This document shows, piece after piece, positions 41,452 to 56,565 of a stretch of DNA of 64,000 bases (position 1 is the stretch's first letter; each line of letters opens with the position of its first letter). The DNA comes from Laspinema sp. D2d (GTDB taxonomy: Bacteria; Cyanobacteriota; Cyanobacteriia; Cyanobacteriales; Laspinemataceae). A model generated the notes under the pieces. That model made no database searches. It was not told the DNA's origin and was given only the letters and a program-made list of their open reading frames with translations. A program made the position numbers and the translations under genes. The stretch lies in assembly GCF_025370755.1 (NCBI RefSeq), contig NZ_JAMXFC010000013.1:62001-126000 (forward strand), in the 5' to 3' direction.

Positions 41452-42537
41452 TTATTCAGTTACTTCCAGAAAATCGGAATTTAGAGAATTAAAAGATAGC
41501 TGAATAGGTTCCTCAAACTTAAGACATTTTTTTGAGGGCGATCGCGCCCTATTTCTCAAATATGCCTTAACCCTAACTGCTAACGACTTGGCTAAAACGG
41601 GGGGAACGGCATTGCCAATTTGTTTACACTGACTGTCTTCGTTGCCATAAAATTCAAACCAATCCGGGAAACTTTGCAGGCGTGCACCTTCACGAACCGT
41701 TAACCGTCGTCTCCGTCCTTCCGGTAAGCGAATTCTTAACATATCTCCCGTTGCTGCACTCAAATTCCGACAGGTTACAGTTCGAGAGGGTCGATCTAAA
41801 TGTAAATCTCTAGGGTTGACACATTTAGACGCTTTTTCATATTTTCTAATATATTCATCCATACTAGGAGTTAGAAATTTGGAGTTGGGTGGTGCCATCA
41901 ATGCCAGTTCTCCGAGGGCTTCTCCAGCGGTGTAAGGATGATAGTGATGAGTTTTTTTGGGCCATTCCCATGCGCCTTTATGGGCGATACAAAATAATCG
42001 CTGTCGGCGTTGAGGAACACCATAATCACTTGCGGTAAGAATTTCCCATTCTATGATGTAATCTAAGGCTTTTAAGCTGTTGATAATTTCTTCAAAATAG
42101 GCTTTATTGCGAAATCGCATTCCGGGCACGTTTTCAAAGATGGCGATCGCCGGTTGATGGCGTTCTACCGCATTGATAAAAATCGGAAATCCATCTCGAC
42201 TGTCTTTGACTCCCTGCTGATTTCCCCCAACACTAAAAGGTTGGCAAGGAGGACCCCCAATAATGATCGATGCGCCTTGAACTAATTCACTTTCAGGGGT
42301 TAATAGAACCTTATGGCAAAGAGAATTGAGATTTTTCCGATAAGTCATACAGGCGTCGGAGTCCATTTCATATCCAATGGTTCTAAATCCGACCGCTTCA
42401 AATCCTAATGCAAATCCCCCACAACCGGAAAATAGGTCAATCACCAAGGGTTTATCGGTGCGATCCGAAATGGGTTTAAGTTCAGTATTCAGAAACTCAA
42501 GATAAGGGATTTTTTCAGGGGGGTGTTCAGGAGTCAT
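41452..42537 (-). CDS. DNA cytosine-5 methyltransferase
   Basis: 361 residues with the C5-methyltransferase motifs in order: I DLFSGCGGFALGFEAVGF, IV GGPPCQPFS (catalytic Cys), VI FENVPG, VIII QRRQRLFCIAH, IX RPSRTVTCRNLS, X GNAVPPVLAKSLA. It methylates cytosine in a short target site; the target-recognition region between VIII and IX is small. No restriction endonuclease is adjacent. It is the last gene of an operon with mntA and hepT, its ATG abutting the hepT stop. It could be an orphan regulatory methylase, possibly of the abundant CGATCG cores, or a remnant of a defence cluster; the specificity is not readable. Confidence 0.92.
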   Translation of the reverse strand: MTPEHPPEKIPYLEFLNTELKPISDRTDKPLVIDLFSGCGGFALGFEAVGFRTIGYEMDSDACMTYRKNLNSLCHKVLLTPESELVQGASIIIGGPPCQPFSVGGNQQGVKDSRDGFPIFINAVERHQPAIAIFENVPGMRFRNKAYFEEIINSLKALDYIIEWEILTASDYGVPQRRQRLFCIAHKGAWEWPKKTHHYHPYTAGEALGELALMAPPNSKFLTPSMDEYIRKYEKASKCVNPRDLHLDRPSRTVTCRNLSAATGDMLRIRLPEGRRRRLTVREGARLQSFPDWFEFYGNEDSQCKQIGNAVPPVLAKSLAVRVKAYLRNRARSPSKKCLKFEEPIQLSFNSLNSDFLEVTE

Positions 42538-42882
42538 TTACGGTTCTGGAGGCTTAATCACTAAAGGTTTAAGTTGTACGAGAAGTTGAGGAATTTCGCC
42601 ATGGATTACGTCCCAAACAATATCGAGGTCAACTTGATCGTATTCATGAACAATCACATCACGCATCCCAGCTAAGTTTCGCCAAGGGATTTCTGGGTGT
42701 TGTTGACGAAATTCCATTGAAAGGCGCTTTGTGGCTTCTCCAATGATTGTAATCTGATAGAGAATCGCTGAAACCTTTTCATCATTAGTGATCAGTTCAG
42801 TTGGCTCAATACCATTGGCATAGCGGAGGATACGCTTAGCGGCATTTTCAATATCAATTAGGGATTCTAGATCTTGTGGCAT
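42538..42882 (-). CDS. hepT: HepT-like RNase toxin (HEPN family)
   Basis: 114 residues from the ATG at 42882 (MPQDLESLIDIENAAKRIL). The helical HEPN fold carries the active-site Rx4HxY as RDVIVHEY (about residue 84), with IGEATKRLS before it, as in DUF86/HepT toxins. HepT cleaves RNA and is silenced when the partner nucleotidyltransferase MntA adenylylates the motif tyrosine (known for HepT-MntA pairs). It overlaps the mntA end by 29 bases. An upstream in-frame ATG at 42933 would deepen the overlap and adds residues outside the family. Confidence 0.88.
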   Translation of the reverse strand: MPQDLESLIDIENAAKRILRYANGIEPTELITNDEKVSAILYQITIIGEATKRLSMEFRQQHPEIPWRNLAGMRDVIVHEYDQVDLDIVWDVIHGEIPQLLVQLKPLVIKPPEP

Positions 42883-43210
42883 AGATAACTTGTGCAGATT
42901 CCAGTATCTGTTGACGGCGTAGCCAGTTTTCACTTTTGGCGATCGCAGGTTTTACAATTAAGTCAACTTCCCGGCCAAAAAGGGTTTCTAACTCCTGACG
43001 CATTTGGATTGTTTCGGCTAAACCCCGCCGAAATTGCGGGTCAAACGTGACCAGCACATCAATGTCACTATCGGGGCGAAAATCATCGCGCAAGACGGAG
43101 CCAAATAGAGCAAATTCTGTGATGTGCCAGCGTTGGCAAAACGCTTGAATTTGGGCGAAGGGCAGTTCGATATTGTGGTTAATTGCGTTCATAGTTAACA
43201 GCGAAATCAT
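42854..43210 (-). CDS. mntA: MntA-like nucleotidyltransferase antitoxin
   Basis: 118 residues. The minimal nucleotidyltransferase motif is intact: FALFGSVLRDDFRPDSDIDVLV, with the GS pair and the two metal aspartates (DSDID), and a third acidic residue in EVDLIVKP. MntA transfers AMP to HepT and neutralises it. The start at 43210 overlaps the stop of a 51-residue ORF (ATGA), which favours it over the internal ATG at 43192. The C-terminal part overlaps hepT. Confidence 0.9.
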   Translation of the reverse strand: MISLLTMNAINHNIELPFAQIQAFCQRWHITEFALFGSVLRDDFRPDSDIDVLVTFDPQFRRGLAETIQMRQELETLFGREVDLIVKPAIAKSENWLRRQQILESAQVIYATRSRIPN

Positions 43211-43596: not shown

Positions 43597-44886
43597 TTAT
43601 CTCGCTCTCCCCCAAGGAATGGTTGGGTCTGCGGCGAGTTCTACGGCGACGGAAAAGGCTCCGTAGCGGTTGAGGTGACTGGGGTCGGCAAAGTAATTAT
43701 CCTGGGTGGGCCAGAGTTGCCCGAGGTCGCGGAAAATAAAGCCTCGTTGAGTCGCCATGCGTTGCATTTGAGTTCGGAATTGTTGTTCGGAGGAACTTCT
43801 CACGGCGTCGAGGTAATCGCTATTTAAGGGGAGATTAACGACGACTAAGGGGATTTGTTTGCTGTTGGTAAATTGCGCGATCGCCTCTAATGCTCGGGTT
43901 TGTTCCCCTTGCAAGCTAAATGCTGCATAATCTCCATCATATTGCCCCGATACTCGCGGATGTTTCTGATAGTAGGTCTCGGGATTATAGCGATCGCTCA
44001 CGGGAACGAACCCCGTGGGTTGCATTTGGTTCGGGGTCTGCTGGGCAGTCAGGGCTTCTATGGTCGGCAGGGGGGGTCTCCCAGTTCCAGGAGTGGGGGT
44101 GCTGGGTCTGGGGTTGTTCCGACGGTCTCCGGGGTCCCCCCGTCGGATCCACATCGCCTGTTGTGCCTCGTCATTGTATGTGGCGGCAATTTCTTCTCTG
44201 ACCTGACTAAACCAGACATTCATCGCTTGATAGGTTGTGGCAAGGGCTTCTCGGGGGTCATCATTGGTGGTGAGTGGGGGGGGCGGGTCTATTTTCGGAA
44301 AGGCCCCCGGGACCGCACTTTGCCGCCTTCTTGTCGGTCCGGTTCTGGTGGGGGTGGATGAACCTTGGGTTTGTAGAGGACGCACGCCACTGGAGAGGAG
44401 GCGATACCCTTCGGATTCCAGGATTGCTTGATAGGTGCGATCGGGACGACCATTATTAAAAGCTCTCACGCCATCGGCCCAAATAATCAGTTTGGGGAGT
44501 TGATCCGGGGTCAAAATTCTCCGTAATAGGAGATCAATGACTTGGGCCGTGGCTCCATTGATGCTAAAGTTATAAATTCTCAGTCCCGGATGTCCATAAT
44601 GGGCTAAGGCGAGTTCTAAGGCGAGGGGGTCTACGCCTTGTAGGGCGCGGGAACTGCCGACGATTAAGATATCTGGAGGTCCGGATTGGTTCAACTGTTG
44701 CTGATAGCGGATCAGTTGTTCGTCGAGTCGCTGACTGTTAAAGGAGGGGAAGGGTTGGGACTGGGATCTTCGGGCGTTGACGACCCCCTGAGCGATCGCT
44801 GGATGAATCCACAGGGTTTGAGTTACTGCTGGGAGTGCGATCGCCAGGGATAACAGTCTCAAAGTCACAAACGCGAGTCTTTTCAT
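43597..44886 (-). CDS. Exported SGNH/DUF1574-like protein
   Basis: 429 residues. The N-terminal hydrophobic stretch (FVTLRLLSLAIALPAVTQTL) with an AIAQ cleavage-like site suggests export. DILIVGSSRALQGVDP (about residues 73-88) is a block I-like GSSR serine motif, and FADPSHLNRYGA near the C-terminus is the block V Asp-x-x-His, as in SGNH hydrolases. The central ~100 residues (about 180-280) are a Pro/Thr/Arg-rich low-complexity linker. It resembles the cyanobacterial DUF1574 family and could modify an extracellular polysaccharide; the substrate is unknown. Confidence 0.7.
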   Translation of the reverse strand: MKRLAFVTLRLLSLAIALPAVTQTLWIHPAIAQGVVNARRSQSQPFPSFNSQRLDEQLIRYQQQLNQSGPPDILIVGSSRALQGVDPLALELALAHYGHPGLRIYNFSINGATAQVIDLLLRRILTPDQLPKLIIWADGVRAFNNGRPDRTYQAILESEGYRLLSSGVRPLQTQGSSTPTRTGPTRRRQSAVPGAFPKIDPPPPLTTNDDPREALATTYQAMNVWFSQVREEIAATYNDEAQQAMWIRRGDPGDRRNNPRPSTPTPGTGRPPLPTIEALTAQQTPNQMQPTGFVPVSDRYNPETYYQKHPRVSGQYDGDYAAFSLQGEQTRALEAIAQFTNSKQIPLVVVNLPLNSDYLDAVRSSSEQQFRTQMQRMATQRGFIFRDLGQLWPTQDNYFADPSHLNRYGAFSVAVELAADPTIPWGRAR

Positions 44887-45229: not shown

Positions 45230-45257
45230 AAAAAAAATTTGGAAAGTTTTGCAAATC

Positions 45258-45348
45258 TTCACAAGATTTTCACAGCTCTCCATTATCTTGATAATCAGCT
45301 AAGGTTCCAAACCTGTTCGTAACTTCTTTCAAAGCCCCTTTAAAAACC
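45258..45348 (+). promoter_or_regulatory. Unit A upstream region with 11-bp direct repeats
   Basis: TTCACA occurs at 45258 and 45269 (11 bp apart), after an A7T3 tract. Four further 8-base blocks at 45306, 45317, 45328 and 45339 (TCCAAACC, TCGTAACT, TTCAAAGC, TTTAAAAA) are again 11 bp apart and end just before the candidate RNA. The period and TTAAC-like content resemble Pho boxes / OmpR-family sites. Confidence 0.55.
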
Positions 45349-45452
45349 ACTGGCTGTATTGATGCCTTTTACAATCGTTTCTTGTATAAGGACTCAGCCA
45401 GTTTATAAAAATAACCCATAACCAGACCCAATTGGGTCTGGTTATATTTTTA
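45349..45452 (+). ncRNA. Candidate small RNA, unit A
   Basis: Predicted ~104-nt transcript. The 5' stem is ACTGGCTG (45349-45356) with CAGCCAGT (45395-45402). The loop contains GATGCCT and a small hairpin, TACAA/TTGTA. A linker, TTATAAAA, is followed by a perfect 28-base palindrome, ATAACCAGACCCAA/TTGGGTCTGGTTAT (45418-45445), then ATTTTT. Units B and C have the same layout. Ends are inferred; the opposite strand cannot be excluded. Confidence 0.6.
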
Positions 45453-45553
45453 GAGCTAATTTTAGCTCTGGGGTACTGGATCCGGGGGAAAGGAGAGGCC
45501 CTGGGATCACGGACTCATACCCCTCAAAAAATTTTTAGAAAAATTTTCCAATC

Positions 45554-45643
45554 TTCATAAGATATTCACATTCTTTCATTATCTTAATAAGCAATAAAGG
45601 TTTTAACTTCTTTTTAACTCATTTCAAAGCTCTTTTAAACTTC
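45554..45643 (+). promoter_or_regulatory. Unit B upstream region with 11-bp direct repeats
   Basis: TTCATA at 45554 and TTCACA at 45565 are followed by blocks at 45601, 45612, 45623 and 45634 reading TTTTAACT, TTTTAACT, TTCAAAGC, TTTAAACT, all at 11-bp spacing (8 bases plus 3). This is the best of the three copies and closest to the cyanobacterial Pho-box layout of 8-bp repeats separated by 3 bp. Confidence 0.6.
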
Positions 45644-45745
45644 ACTTGCTGACACTTAGTTGTTGCCTTGCCCTCTACCATTGAATAATCGTCAGCGGGT
45701 CTATAAAATTAGCCCAGATCCCTCGGGGTCTGGGCCTATTATTTG
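45644..45745 (+). ncRNA. Candidate small RNA, unit B
   Basis: The 5' stem is ACTTGCTGAC (45644-45653) with GTCAGCGGGT (45691-45700): 10 pairs including two G-U. The loop has TTGCCTTGCCCTC. The linker CTATAAAATTA is followed by an 11-bp terminator-like stem, GCCCAGATCCC / GGGGTCTGGGC (45712-45735), then CTATTATTT. Stem sequences differ from unit A but still pair. Confidence 0.6.
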
Positions 45746-45804
45746 GGTGGAGTCTCCAAGTATTGGATCCGAAATCTGCTCCCTTTTGGGAGGGAACCTT
45801 TTAG

Positions 45805-45981
45805 GTTAGGGAACTCTACAAAATAAAATCTTCTATCAGAGATCCCCCCAACCCCCCGGGAGATCCCCCTCCCGTCCCCCTTCTTAAGGGGGAAGCCAGA
45901 GGAATAAATATTTAGTTCCAGGGGGGCTTGAATAATTCGGCATTACTTCTAATGCAGAAGTTTTTTTATGGAAATCCCTTA
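45805..45981. repeat. Dispersed palindromic repeat, family 1, copy d with nested insertion
   Basis: Matches 14674-14794 on both sides, but the seven-base loop TTATTAA between the C6 and G6 blocks is replaced by ~63 bases. The insert carries its own palindromes (GGGAGATCCCCCTCCC; CCCCCTTCTTAAGGGGG). It separates units B and C of the small-RNA array, so it inserted between them or was retained there. Confidence 0.85.
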
Positions 45982-46060
45982 CCAGAATTACCAAGATAGG
46001 CAGGGACTAACCTCGGGAGGGCCAAAGTCCCTAAAAAAATTTTTTGAAGTTAGGAAAATC

Positions 46061-46149
46061 TTCATCAGATATTCACATTGGTTGCTTATCTTTAAAACCA
46101 GCAACGGTTATCCCTTTTTTTGACGGTTTTCAATAAAGTTTTAAAAACC
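46061..46149 (+). promoter_or_regulatory. Unit C upstream region with 11-bp direct repeats
   Basis: TTCATC (46061) and TTCACA (46072), then blocks at 46107, 46118, 46129 and 46140 (GTTATCCC, TTTTGACG, TTCAATAA, TTTAAAAA), keep the same 11-bp phase and the same distance to the RNA as in units A and B. Confidence 0.5.
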
Positions 46150-46252
46150 GCTAACTGACTCCCGATGCCTAAAGCCCTCGATTGTTTTTTAATAGCCGTC
46201 AGTTAGCTTATAAAAGAAGCCCAGACCCTTAAAAGTCTGGGCTTCTGATTTG
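46150..46252 (+). ncRNA. Candidate small RNA, unit C
   Basis: The 5' stem is GCTAACTGAC (46150-46159) with GTCAGTTAGC (46198-46207), a perfect 10 bp. The loop has GATGCCTAAAGCCCTCGATTG. The linker TTATAAAA is followed by a perfect 12-bp hairpin, AGAAGCCCAGAC / GTCTGGGCTTCT (46215-46246). On the minus strand the same hairpin is followed by TTTT and could also terminate the fructosamine kinase gene ending at 46262. Confidence 0.6.
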
Positions 46253-46261
46253 GGGGATACG

Positions 46262-47128
46262 TTAATCTAATAGGGTGGCGATCGCTCGATTGGCTTGGGA
46301 CCCATACCCGCCCCCAAATAAATTAAAATGATTCAGAATGTGATAAAGGTTATAAAGGGTTTTGCGCTGTTCATATCCCGCAGGCAAGGGCCAAACTTCG
46401 TTATATCCTTGATAGAAAGCTGTGGAAAATCCCCCAAATAATTCAGTCATAGCAATATCAACTTCCCGATCGCCATAATAGGTGGCAGGGTCATAAATAG
46501 TCGGTTCCCCCGCTTCAGTCACCCCGGCATTGCCACCCCATAAATCGCCGTGAACGAGGGAGGGTTGGGGGGTATGATTTGCTAATAATTTAGGAATTGC
46601 ATCGATGAGGCGATCGCCCTGGGGAAACTGCCCCCCTTTTCGTTGCGCCAGTTGAAGTTGAAACCCGATGCGATGTTCCGCCCAAAACTCCGTCCAATCG
46701 GCGGTCCAGGTATTAATTTGTGGGGTAGAACCAATGGTATTATTCCGACTCCAGCCAAATTTGCCTGAACCGGAATGTTGATGCAATGCAGCTAGTTTGC
46801 GCCCCATTTCTCGGGAAACTTCAGTATCGGCGCGAGACGCCAACTCCAGCCACTCTAAAACAATATAGGCTGAATCATTGGCAATGCCAGTACAAATCGG
46901 TTTGGGGACTCGAATGGTGTGGGTGTCCCACATTTCTTGCAATCCCAACGCCTCCGCCTCAAACATGGGCAGATCCACAGCGCGATTCAGCTTGACAAAG
47001 TAGGTGCGATTGCCTCCCGTGACGCGATACCCTTGATTGATGCAACCCCCACCCACAGAACGGCGATCGCCCAGGGCAAATTTCTCTCCGGTTACCTCAG
47101 CAATCTGTTTCGCAATGTGATCCCACAT
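46262..47128 (-). CDS. Fructosamine kinase family protein
   Basis: 288 residues from the ATG at 47128 (MWDHIAKQIAEVTG), which has AAGGAAGG immediately upstream; a start at 47146 would include that site in the protein. It has an APH-like kinase fold: RTYFVKLN with the ATP-binding lysine, catalytic loop LVHGDLWGGNAG (about residue 200), and IYDPATYYGDREVDIAM as the metal-binding region. Family members phosphorylate ketoamines such as fructosamine and ribulosamine so that glycated amines are released (protein deglycation). It appears monocistronic, followed by the unit C hairpin. Confidence 0.87.
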   Translation of the reverse strand: MWDHIAKQIAEVTGEKFALGDRRSVGGGCINQGYRVTGGNRTYFVKLNRAVDLPMFEAEALGLQEMWDTHTIRVPKPICTGIANDSAYIVLEWLELASRADTEVSREMGRKLAALHQHSGSGKFGWSRNNTIGSTPQINTWTADWTEFWAEHRIGFQLQLAQRKGGQFPQGDRLIDAIPKLLANHTPQPSLVHGDLWGGNAGVTEAGEPTIYDPATYYGDREVDIAMTELFGGFSTAFYQGYNEVWPLPAGYEQRKTLYNLYHILNHFNLFGGGYGSQANRAIATLLD

Positions 47129-47214
47129 GGTTCCTTCCTTCAGCATCCCTGACGGTTATTAAATTTGGTTTTTAAAGACCTATTCTAAAATAGCCCAACC
47201 ATCCCAGGAGTCCA

Positions 47215-54192: not shown

Positions 54193-56565
54193 ATGCATAT
54201 TGAGGCGACTGCAACCAATCAACAAGCTGAACGCTATTATCAAGATGGAAAGTGGACCGAGGCAGTGGCCCTCTGCCATCAACTGATTCAAATTCAGCCC
54301 AATTTTTCTCCAATTTATAAAACTTTGGGGAATAGTTTACAAGCTCAAGGTAAACTAGATGCAGCAATGCGGGCTTACCATCGCGCATTAGTTCTTAATC
54401 CGGAATTTGCCGAAGTTCATGCCAATCAGGGGACAATTTTTTATCAAATCGGTGATTTAGAATCAGCGGTTTTCTGCTATCAAAAAGCTTTAAAACTTCA
54501 GCCAAATTGGGCTGGGGTTTATTGGAATTTAGGAAAAGTTTTTAAGGAACAAGGACGAGTCGATGAGGGAATAGAGTATCAGAAAACCGCTTTAAACCTC
54601 AATCCGAGTCAGTTTCCCCCGGACCTGCACAATCAAGTGGGATTAGAGTTAAGTAAACGGGCAACCATCGAAGAAACCACCGCATTTTATCAGCAGTTTA
54701 CCGAGACTTACCCCGATTGGGGTCCCGCTTACTTGAATCTAGGGATATTTTTGGAATTACAGAAAAAAATAAAAGAGGCGATCTCCTGTTTTCAGAAAGC
54801 AGTAACCCTGCAACCTAATCTCGCTGCGGGTCACTTTAAATTGGGCTATTTGCTGCAACAAAAAAATGAAATTGAATCGGCGATCGCTAGTTTTCAAGCT
54901 ACAATAGAACATCAACCTGATTGGATTGAAGCCTACAATAATTTAGGGTTAATTTTAAGAAAAATCAAGCGCGAAGCAGAAGCCATCGACTATTTTAAAA
55001 AAGCTATTGAAATTAACCCCAATTTTGCCGAAGGCTACCGCAACTTGGGAACCACCTTGCAGCAACAAGGCAAGCTAGAAGCCGCCGCTACTTGTTTGCG
55101 AGACTGTATTAAAATTCAGCCCAATTTTGCCCTCGCCCACGGCAATTTAGGCTACATTTTAGAACAACAAGGTAAACTCGATGAAGCCAAAACCTCTCTC
55201 CGTCATGCGATCGCCCTAGAACCCGATTTAGCAATGGCCTATGGCAATCTAGGGAATATTTTACACCGGGAAGGGGAACTAGAAGAGTCCATCTCTTGTT
55301 TCCAAAAGGCGATTAAATATGATGCAGATTTCATGATGCTTTACTTCCGAGGTCAACCCCATTTAGAAGCAATACCTCGGCAATCTTTGGTGGAACTTCC
55401 GGTGAACTCACCCAAAAAAATCTGTCGATTAACTCAACATTTAGCGACCCAATTTCAATTAAATAACCCGGCAGCGGACATCACTTATGTGGAAATAAGT
55501 CCGCGCATCTCTGTTCATTTAACCGCAGGGAAAACCCTAGCGGTGGAGGATAAAGCAGTTCCGACTTATTTCCCAGAAACCCAGGGATATTCCCCAGAAA
55601 CCTATCTAGCAAGTATCCCTAATGGACGGGCTTGGGGTGATTTATATACCAGTGTGATTTGGTCTGAACACAATACTCTTTTAGCGGATCTTTCTACGGG
55701 AAATGTCCCTTTTTTATTCGCCTTAGATAAGTTGCCTCCCGTTCATAAAATTGAAGGAACCGTCGCCTTTCTTTCAACCCTTGGAGGGGATACCTATTAT
55801 CATTGGTGGGTAGATATTATTCCGCGACTTGAACTCTTGCGCCGGAGTGGCATCGATTGGGATAAAATTGATAAATTTGTGATTAATAATGTTAGCCATC
55901 GCTTCCAACAAGACCTGATTCATACCTTAAATATCCCCCCAGAAAAATTGATAACCAGCCTGGACTATCCCCACATTCAGGCAACTCAGTTATGGGTTCC
56001 TTCGGTTACCAGTAGTACGGAAAAATGGTTTGGGCCGTTTATTGAAGGTCCACCCAAATGGGTTTGCAACTTTCTCCAAGAAAGATTTACCTCCCTCGCC
56101 GATTCCCCGGATTCTGACACCCCAGAAAAAATCTACATTAGCCGTCGCAAAGCCAAAGTCCGTCGAGTTATTAATGAAGATGAAATTAGCGCCTTGTTAG
56201 AACCCTTGGGGTTTACAACTGTCATTTTAGAAGCCCTTTCTATCCGGGAGCAAATTGCTTTAATGACTCGCGCTAAAACGATTATAGCTCCACATGGGGC
56301 AGGATTAACGAATACCCTATTCTGTCAACCCGGGACTCAACTTCTGGAGATTTTTTCTCCTCGGTATGTTCCCAATTGTTATTGGATTATTAGTAATCAA
56401 GTAGGGTTAGACTATTATTATATGATTGGAGACAATCAGGAAAATTACTATACTAAATATCCTCATTTGCGCCCTAAGCCGGTAAATTGCCCCCCTCGGG
56501 CTGAAGATATTTATGTTAACTTAAATTCTCTAGTTCCGGTAATGGAGTTAGCAGGCATGGTTTAG
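54193..56565 (+). CDS. TPR protein fused to a GT61 (DUF563) glycosyltransferase
   Basis: 790 residues from the ATG at 54193; an upstream in-frame start adds 22 unconserved residues. Residues ~5-390 hold about ten TPR units (for example YYQDGKWTEAVALCHQLIQIQPNF and AYNNLGLILRKIKREAEAIDYFKKAIEI). Residues ~450-780 match the DUF563/GT61 domain: GGDTYYHWWVDIIPRLELL, IYISRRKAKVRRVIN, and the conserved APHGAGLTNTLFCQPGTQLLEIF. It probably glycosylates a surface glycan or protein, with TPRs for partner binding, as in O-GlcNAc transferase-like fusions. There is no signal peptide. Confidence 0.88.
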   Translation: MHIEATATNQQAERYYQDGKWTEAVALCHQLIQIQPNFSPIYKTLGNSLQAQGKLDAAMRAYHRALVLNPEFAEVHANQGTIFYQIGDLESAVFCYQKALKLQPNWAGVYWNLGKVFKEQGRVDEGIEYQKTALNLNPSQFPPDLHNQVGLELSKRATIEETTAFYQQFTETYPDWGPAYLNLGIFLELQKKIKEAISCFQKAVTLQPNLAAGHFKLGYLLQQKNEIESAIASFQATIEHQPDWIEAYNNLGLILRKIKREAEAIDYFKKAIEINPNFAEGYRNLGTTLQQQGKLEAAATCLRDCIKIQPNFALAHGNLGYILEQQGKLDEAKTSLRHAIALEPDLAMAYGNLGNILHREGELEESISCFQKAIKYDADFMMLYFRGQPHLEAIPRQSLVELPVNSPKKICRLTQHLATQFQLNNPAADITYVEISPRISVHLTAGKTLAVEDKAVPTYFPETQGYSPETYLASIPNGRAWGDLYTSVIWSEHNTLLADLSTGNVPFLFALDKLPPVHKIEGTVAFLSTLGGDTYYHWWVDIIPRLELLRRSGIDWDKIDKFVINNVSHRFQQDLIHTLNIPPEKLITSLDYPHIQATQLWVPSVTSSTEKWFGPFIEGPPKWVCNFLQERFTSLADSPDSDTPEKIYISRRKAKVRRVINEDEISALLEPLGFTTVILEALSIREQIALMTRAKTIIAPHGAGLTNTLFCQPGTQLLEIFSPRYVPNCYWIISNQVGLDYYYMIGDNQENYYTKYPHLRPKPVNCPPRAEDIYVNLNSLVPVMELAGMV

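What the first reader, a model, noticed from the sequence alone, without database searches (positions are those of the whole stretch)
45230..46260. Three tandem copies of a candidate small-RNA gene with a covarying stem
Units A (45349-45452), B (45644-45745) and C (46150-46252) share layout and length (~103 nt): 5' stem, loop with (G)ATGCCT, TTATAAAA-like linker, GC-rich hairpin. The 5' stems are ACTGGCTG/CAGCCAGT, ACTTGCTGAC/GTCAGCGGGT and GCTAACTGAC/GTCAGTTAGC. Positions 1, 4 and 5 of the stem change on both arms so that pairing is kept (A-U to G-C; G-C to U-G to A-U; G-C to A-U). Compensatory change in three copies is good evidence for a functional RNA. I do not recall a described cyanobacterial RNA family matching it.
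Basis: partly seen in the sequence, partly recalled or inferred. Interest (0 to 1): 0.88.

Follow-up and report, generated by a model that had tools for sequence, protein, structure and literature searches.

The report
Tandem cyanobacterial small-RNA gene family
Three neighbouring copies of what looks like a small regulatory RNA gene, matching no catalogued RNA family, are kept across one cyanobacterial genus, each with the same control region, and relatives sit beside the same sugar-repair gene in other genera; nobody has yet seen the transcripts or their targets.

Summary
All 8 genomes held for the genus (probably Laspinema) carry A, B and C; one C is cut by a contig end. Relatives occur in 5 of 6 other family genomes and 2 of 20 genomes of a second family, convergent with a fructosamine-kinase gene wherever the contig reaches it; 27 other FN3K loci lack it. 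In the core 5' stem 6 of 8 pairs change on both sides; G-U wobbles outnumber A-C 22 to 2, favouring a plus-strand RNA. No Rfam family matches. Best reading: co-regulated sibling small RNAs with a structural 5' stem, divergent loops and an intrinsic terminator, probably acting in trans by base pairing. Transcription, regulator and targets are untested. The kind is known (tandem NsiR1); the family appears new.

The parts
45230..45348 (+). Upstream control region of unit A
   Evidence: Repeat families D1 and D2 shared with B and C; same layout in relatives; 45301-45340 is 98-99% identical across 7 other genus genomes
45255..45274 (+). Operator-like direct repeat of A (ATCTTCA-N2-AGAT-N-TTCACA); proposed response-regulator site (inference)
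   Evidence: 0-mismatch match, one of only three in the 6.6-Mb genome
45316..45344 (+). Proposed core promoter of A: TTCGTA - 17 nt - TTTAAA (my reading; not recognised by the consensus scan)
   Evidence: Geometry kept in B and C and roughly in relatives; one search does not list it
45349..45452 (+). RNA unit A
45349..45356 (+). A 5' stem, left arm (pairs with 45395-45402)
45395..45402 (+). A 5' stem, right arm
45418..45445 (+). A intrinsic terminator hairpin, T-rich on both sides (possible bidirectional terminator)
   Evidence: one search lists it on both strands
45526..45643 (+). Upstream control region of unit B
45551..45570 (+). Operator-like direct repeat of B
45611..45639 (+). Proposed core promoter of B: TTTTTA - 17 nt - TTTAAA (inference)
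45644..45744 (+). RNA unit B; stem 45644-45653 with 45691-45700; pyrimidine-rich loop
45712..45735 (+). B intrinsic terminator hairpin
46033..46149 (+). Upstream control region of unit C
46058..46077 (+). Operator-like direct repeat of C
46117..46145 (+). Proposed core promoter of C: TTTTTG - 17 nt - TTTAAA (inference)
46150..46251 (+). RNA unit C; stem 46150-46159 with 46198-46207
46215..46246 (+). C terminator hairpin, ending 15 nt before the stop codon of the convergent FN3K gene
   Evidence: not listed by the terminator scan
46262..47146 (-). Fructosamine kinase (FN3K) gene, convergent with the array; conserved neighbour
   Evidence: Pfam PF03881 E 7.4e-121; synteny
43597..44886 (-). DUF1574 gene, divergent from the array; neighbour also in G008 and G009 but not in G012, G013, G075 or G152

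Best explanation
Three paralogous, co-regulated small RNA genes. Each has its own promoter and, about 95 nt upstream of the RNA, a direct-repeat operator of the kind used by OmpR/PhoB-type response regulators (inferred from layout; regulator unknown). Each is read as a ~100-nt plus-strand RNA: a 5'-terminal stem of 8-10 pairs whose sequence drifts while pairing is kept (protects the 5' end and presents a loop), a loop that differs between siblings, an AU-rich single-stranded linker (UAUAAAA-like), and a CCCAGACC/GGTCTGGG-type intrinsic terminator. The loops most likely base-pair with mRNAs elsewhere, so the siblings are switched on by one signal and act on partly different targets. Shown by computation: conservation, paralogy, covariation, strand bias, shared upstream block, terminator-like hairpin. 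Inferred: transcription, 5' end, regulator, action in trans, targets.
For: Array in 8 of 8 genus genomes. Covariation: 7 of 18 pairs changed on both sides in 23 copies; 6 of 8 core stem pairs in the 34-row alignment, 79 cells with double changes against 24.1 in shuffles. Strand: core stem G-U 22 cells, A-C 2 cells in 32 copies. Rigid ~120-nt upstream block in 13 aligned copies from two families; operator at 0 mismatches only at the three units in the own genome, and of 10 cyanobacterial stretches in 84,980 species genomes 9 lie at units of this family. Loops vary more than stems and upstream block in B and C. B loops are 71-81% pyrimidine as cut by the script, as suits pairing with purine-rich start regions. 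Known precedent: NsiR1, sibling sRNAs in tandem, individual promoters, partly different targets (PMC9045159, passages).
Against: No transcript data. The plus-strand -35/-10 I propose is not found by the consensus scan, whose promoter-like sites lie elsewhere. C is not listed as a terminator by that scan. Two of the Planktothricoides-type genomes' upstream copies lack a terminator and the downstream copies lack the operator block. Two shuffle measures do not exceed chance ('further pair types' 252/500, 496/500). No pairing beyond chance with the two neighbouring mRNAs; no genome-wide target search was done. The loop is poorly conserved in B, so a constant target site is not evident.
Confidence: 0.6

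Rival explanations
1. Cis role on FN3K: the units end just past the FN3K stop codon and act as a shared bidirectional terminator or convergent antisense that limits FN3K expression; extra copies are spare.
For: Convergent neighbourhood kept in 14 of 15 genomes (the fifteenth contig ends inside C); gaps of 10-126 nt (coordinates); A's terminator is scored on both strands; FN3K follows family lines while the RNA stays beside it.
Against: A terminator alone explains neither the 5' stem covariation nor the ~120-nt upstream block of every unit; A and B are far from FN3K and are kept in 8 of 8 genus genomes; a G013 copy lies beside csbD instead; 27 of 27 other FN3K loci do without it.
Confidence: 0.15
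2. Protein-binding RNA: the conserved stem plus UAUAAAA linker is a binding site that titrates or scaffolds an RNA-binding protein, three copies giving dose.
For: Stem and linker are better conserved than the B and C loops; A has a near-invariant apical loop; multiple copies fit titration.
Against: Stem sequence drifts freely; the linker also varies (AAATAAAA in G008, ATTAAAA in G012) and may simply be the T-tract of a reverse terminator; no repeated short motif such as GGA loops was seen.
Confidence: 0.15
3. Leader/attenuator or mobile promoter module: the unit is a regulated 5' leader that sometimes drives a gene and here is left over.
For: In G013 an extra copy of upstream block plus stem lies about 170 nt upstream of and in the direction of a CsbD-like stress gene, without the usual terminator.
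Against: In the array loci there is no downstream gene on the same strand; the next gene is convergent FN3K. Only 1 of the found copies has a sense gene downstream.
Confidence: 0.06
4. DNA-level repeats with no RNA function (duplicated intergenic inverted repeats).
For: No transcript has been seen; intergenic dispersed repeats do occur here (an insert at about 45821-45980).
Against: G-U wobble bias to one strand, covariation, terminator, and conservation across two families.
Confidence: 0.04

Closest known systems
[quoted passage not shown] PCC 7120
   Same: Cyanobacterial sRNA in a tandem array, each copy with its own promoter, slightly divergent siblings with partly different targets, beside a conserved gene (PMC9045159, passages seen).
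   Different: NsiR1 is ~60 nt, 12 copies, upstream of and partly antisense to hetF, with DIF1 promoters; here ~102 nt, 3 copies, convergent with FN3K, no TCCGGA (DIF1 core, recalled) between 44686 and 54398.
Yfr1 and Yfr2 families
   Same: Widely conserved cyanobacterial sRNAs with hairpins; Yfr2 is a multi-copy family (PMC6202907, passages; PMC6778093, abstract start).
   Different: Yfr1 core CTCCTCACAC (recalled) absent from the window; no Rfam match.
PsrR1 (with RpaB)
   Same: A response regulator controlling an sRNA that targets ribosome-binding regions (PMC6202907, passages) is the mechanism proposed here by analogy.
   Different: Different length and structure (131 nt); no sequence match tested beyond Rfam; operator here is TTCACA-type, not shown to bind RpaB.

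Membership tests
Any Rfam 15 family | Score at or above gathering threshold | tested here: not met
   0 matches in the window and in 9 relative loci; 12 sub-threshold matches all far below cut-off
NsiR1 | Tandem copies each with its own promoter-like upstream block | tested here: met
   (transcription itself not tested)
NsiR1 | DIF1 (TCCGGA, recalled) promoter motif | tested here: not met
   nearest matches 44680-44685 and 54399-54404
NsiR1 | Next to / antisense to hetF | tested here: not met
   neighbours are FN3K and DUF1574
NsiR1 | Sequence homology to the ~60-nt RNA | not tested
   no NsiR1 sequence was fetched
Yfr1 | CTCCTCACAC core (recalled) | tested here: not met
   0 matches in the window
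Trans-acting bacterial sRNA (functional class) | Independent ~50-300-nt transcript with intrinsic terminator | tested here: inconclusive
   promoter block and terminator hairpins present; no RNA data
Trans-acting bacterial sRNA (functional class) | Base pairing with target mRNAs | not tested
   only the two neighbouring mRNAs were tried, no signal

The most novel reading that the evidence does not exclude
The three siblings belong to an old cyanobacterial RNA superfamily (short 5' stem-loop, UAUAAAA linker, CCCAG-type terminator) that also includes the short-loop elements seen in other families, with each lineage swapping the promoter block; in this genus it was expanded into a dedicated one-signal, three-target regulon driven by a regulator whose operator occurs nowhere else in the genome.
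Probability: 0.2. Interest if true: 0.7.

Novelty: new member of a known kind. Interest (0 to 1): 0.5.

Why it matters
Filamentous non-heterocystous cyanobacteria have few described sRNAs. A three-sibling array with a private operator, kept across a genus and traceable to two families, is a clean case for asking how duplicated sRNAs split targets while sharing one signal, and it gives a ready covariance model for annotation.

Tried and rejected
Small proteins: unit A contains a 19-codon ATG frame in this genome, but the ATG is lost in G004 and G007 and G006 has an indel; rejected by eye. Rfam families: none. NsiR1 and Yfr1 membership: not met. Pairing of the loops with the FN3K and DUF1574 start regions: 18 comparisons, lowest shuffle fraction 0.035, taken as chance. 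Pairing between siblings: A-C is unusual in G000 (0.02) but not in G005 or G002 (0.67, 0.675); the script cut some loops at an internal ATAA, so one search is only rough. Literature for a TTCACA-type cyanobacterial response-regulator site: one unrelated paper. No paper on sRNAs beside fructosamine kinase (0 papers, listing only).

Short-loop elements in f48/f56 (G623, G642, G542, G495, G577, G632, G501, G526, G449, G561) share the layout but have other upstream regions and neighbours (DUF1824 beside the G623 element); E-values down to 5e-4 among 291 genomes do not prove homology. G248 has two tandem short-loop copies and a third elsewhere, unproven. G010, the one family member without a clear unit, has a weak match (E 0.044) away from FN3K, unproven. 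A third covariance model was not built. A genome-wide target prediction was not attempted.

Full report
What is there. The window lies in a 6.63-Mb draft genome (G000). Units A, B and C are at the stated places. Each folds better than all 200 dinucleotide shuffles. BLAST with A finds no other copy in the genome except a reverse match to its own terminator, and model R2 finds only these three at E<=0.1.

The upstream block. Three ~77-nt and three ~47-nt repeats run from 45230, 45526 and 46033 into the units. The block contains ATCTTCA-N2-AGAT-N-TTCACA (two TTCA/TTCACA half-sites, 11 nt apart), TTATCTT, a GGTT...ACC region and TTT-N-AAA-AACC just before the stem, at nearly fixed spacing in 13 aligned copies (a fourteenth, G011 copy 2, does not fit and was left out of that consensus). 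Allowing 3 mismatches, the operator pattern has 30 matches in the own genome against 10 for the reversed control, but the only 0-mismatch matches are the three units; the next best has 2 mismatches. In 84,980 species genomes a stricter pattern gave 35 stretches; 25 are non-cyanobacterial (near what chance allows, my estimate), 10 are cyanobacterial, and 9 of these lie at units of this family; the tenth (L153) has no unit by model. I read TTCGTA/TTTTTA/TTTTTG - 17 nt - TTTAAA as the core promoter; the consensus scan does not list it and lists others (5 promoter-like sites, 2.3 expected). So the 5' end is inferred.

Genus conservation. A profile of the three units gives 24 copies in 8 of 8 genus genomes: A, B and C in each, with G003's C cut by the contig end. 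Identity along the region is highest in the upstream blocks and in A, lowest in the B loop (0.61) and the spacers (0.67-0.74); a stretch at about 45821-45980 is absent from the others and contains a dispersed repeat word.

Structure. In 23 complete genus copies 97.7% of cells pair and 7 of 18 pairs change on both sides (2 of 500 shuffles reach this); sliding the partner gives at most 47.2%. 'Further pair types' does not exceed shuffles (252/500). In the 34-row model alignment (fitted to the structure, so it leans that way; two rows are a cut copy and an antisense chance match) 6 of 8 core stem pairs change on both sides, 79 cells against 24.1 shuffled, 0/500; pairs changed 10 against 7.5 (20/500); further types 20 against 21.8 (496/500). 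In the 32 usable rows the core stem has 22 G-U cells and 2 A-C cells; over all 10 pairs 31 and 9. This favours a plus-strand RNA, although cells are not independent. Unit A also has an apical hairpin with a near-invariant CGTTTCTTGT segment; its covariation is weak (1 of 9 pairs).

Relatives. Model R1, built only from the genus, finds G008 at E 2.0e-11, G009 4.4e-7, G013 4.7e-4, G075 0.0037, G152 0.0069, G011 0.0084 and G012 0.0085 in a sample of 291 order genomes, among 38 genomes with a match at E<=1. The weaker ones were accepted because they carry the upstream block (G075, G152) and/or stand beside FN3K (all of these). Model R2, which includes most of these as training rows, gives 15 strong genomes of 388 in the order, all at E<=6e-13, and 11 others at E 0.028-0.5; 13 of 14 genomes of the family (G010: 0.044); 2 of 20 of the second family (two others at 0.057 and 0.083). 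In 291 class genomes the best non-own match is 5e-4.

Neighbourhood. In 14 of the 15 genomes with clear units the unit nearest to FN3K is convergent with it; in G003 the contig ends inside C. Gaps are 10-126 nt by my arithmetic in eight genomes (G000, G005, G008, G009, G012, G013, G075, G152). FN3K loci of 27 other genomes have no unit; some flanks are cut by contig ends, with G075 as positive control. In the FN3K tree the second family's enzymes group with their own family (99/96), so recent transfer of the pair is not indicated; the RNA label needs 4 changes against 8.0 shuffled. The arrangement is thus probably old, with losses. The opposite neighbour is DUF1574 in the genus, G008 and G009, but differs elsewhere.

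Variation. In G011, G012, G013 and Planktothricoides sp. SR001 two units stand in tandem: the first has operator, stem and UAUAAAA but no terminator, the second lacks the operator block but has the terminator. G013 has an extra copy about 170 nt upstream of a CsbD-like gene, a hint at a stress signal.

Mechanism. The stem is structural; the loops differ; the terminator closes the RNA. The best reading is trans-acting sibling sRNAs under one signal, as in NsiR1 (passages of PMC9045159). The loops do not pair beyond chance with the two neighbour mRNAs. No target is known. Literature searches in an open-access library found no description of this RNA; subscription journals are mostly not held.

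Noticed in passing
window 41452-43210 (-): A C-5 cytosine DNA methylase next to a nucleotidyltransferase/HepT-like pair (MNT-HepT type toxin-antitoxin; Pfam PF00145, PF01909, PF01934).
   Followed up: partly
window 45821-45980: Insert between B and C found only in this genome of 8; contains the dispersed word GATCCCCCCAACCCCC, 4 matches in the window where 0.04 are expected.
   Followed up: partly
L169 / L211 (G013:C34): Duplicate of operator block plus 5' stem in front of a CsbD-like stress gene, lacking the usual terminator.
   Followed up: partly
L129, L132, L133, L136, L142 and others (f48, f56): Short-loop elements of similar layout (stem, AUAAAA, CCCAG terminator) with their own conserved upstream region, beside a DUF1824-type gene in five loci of one genus.
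   Followed up: partly
L082 and L069 (G248): Three short-loop copies of similar layout, two of them about 300 nt apart in tandem.
   Followed up: no
L087, L088, L089, L086 (genus genomes): GC-rich hairpin elements (TAGTCTATAAAA + CCCACACCC terminator-like hairpin, often with TTGTAGGGGCG repeats) recur in the genus genomes; unrelated to the array.
   Followed up: no
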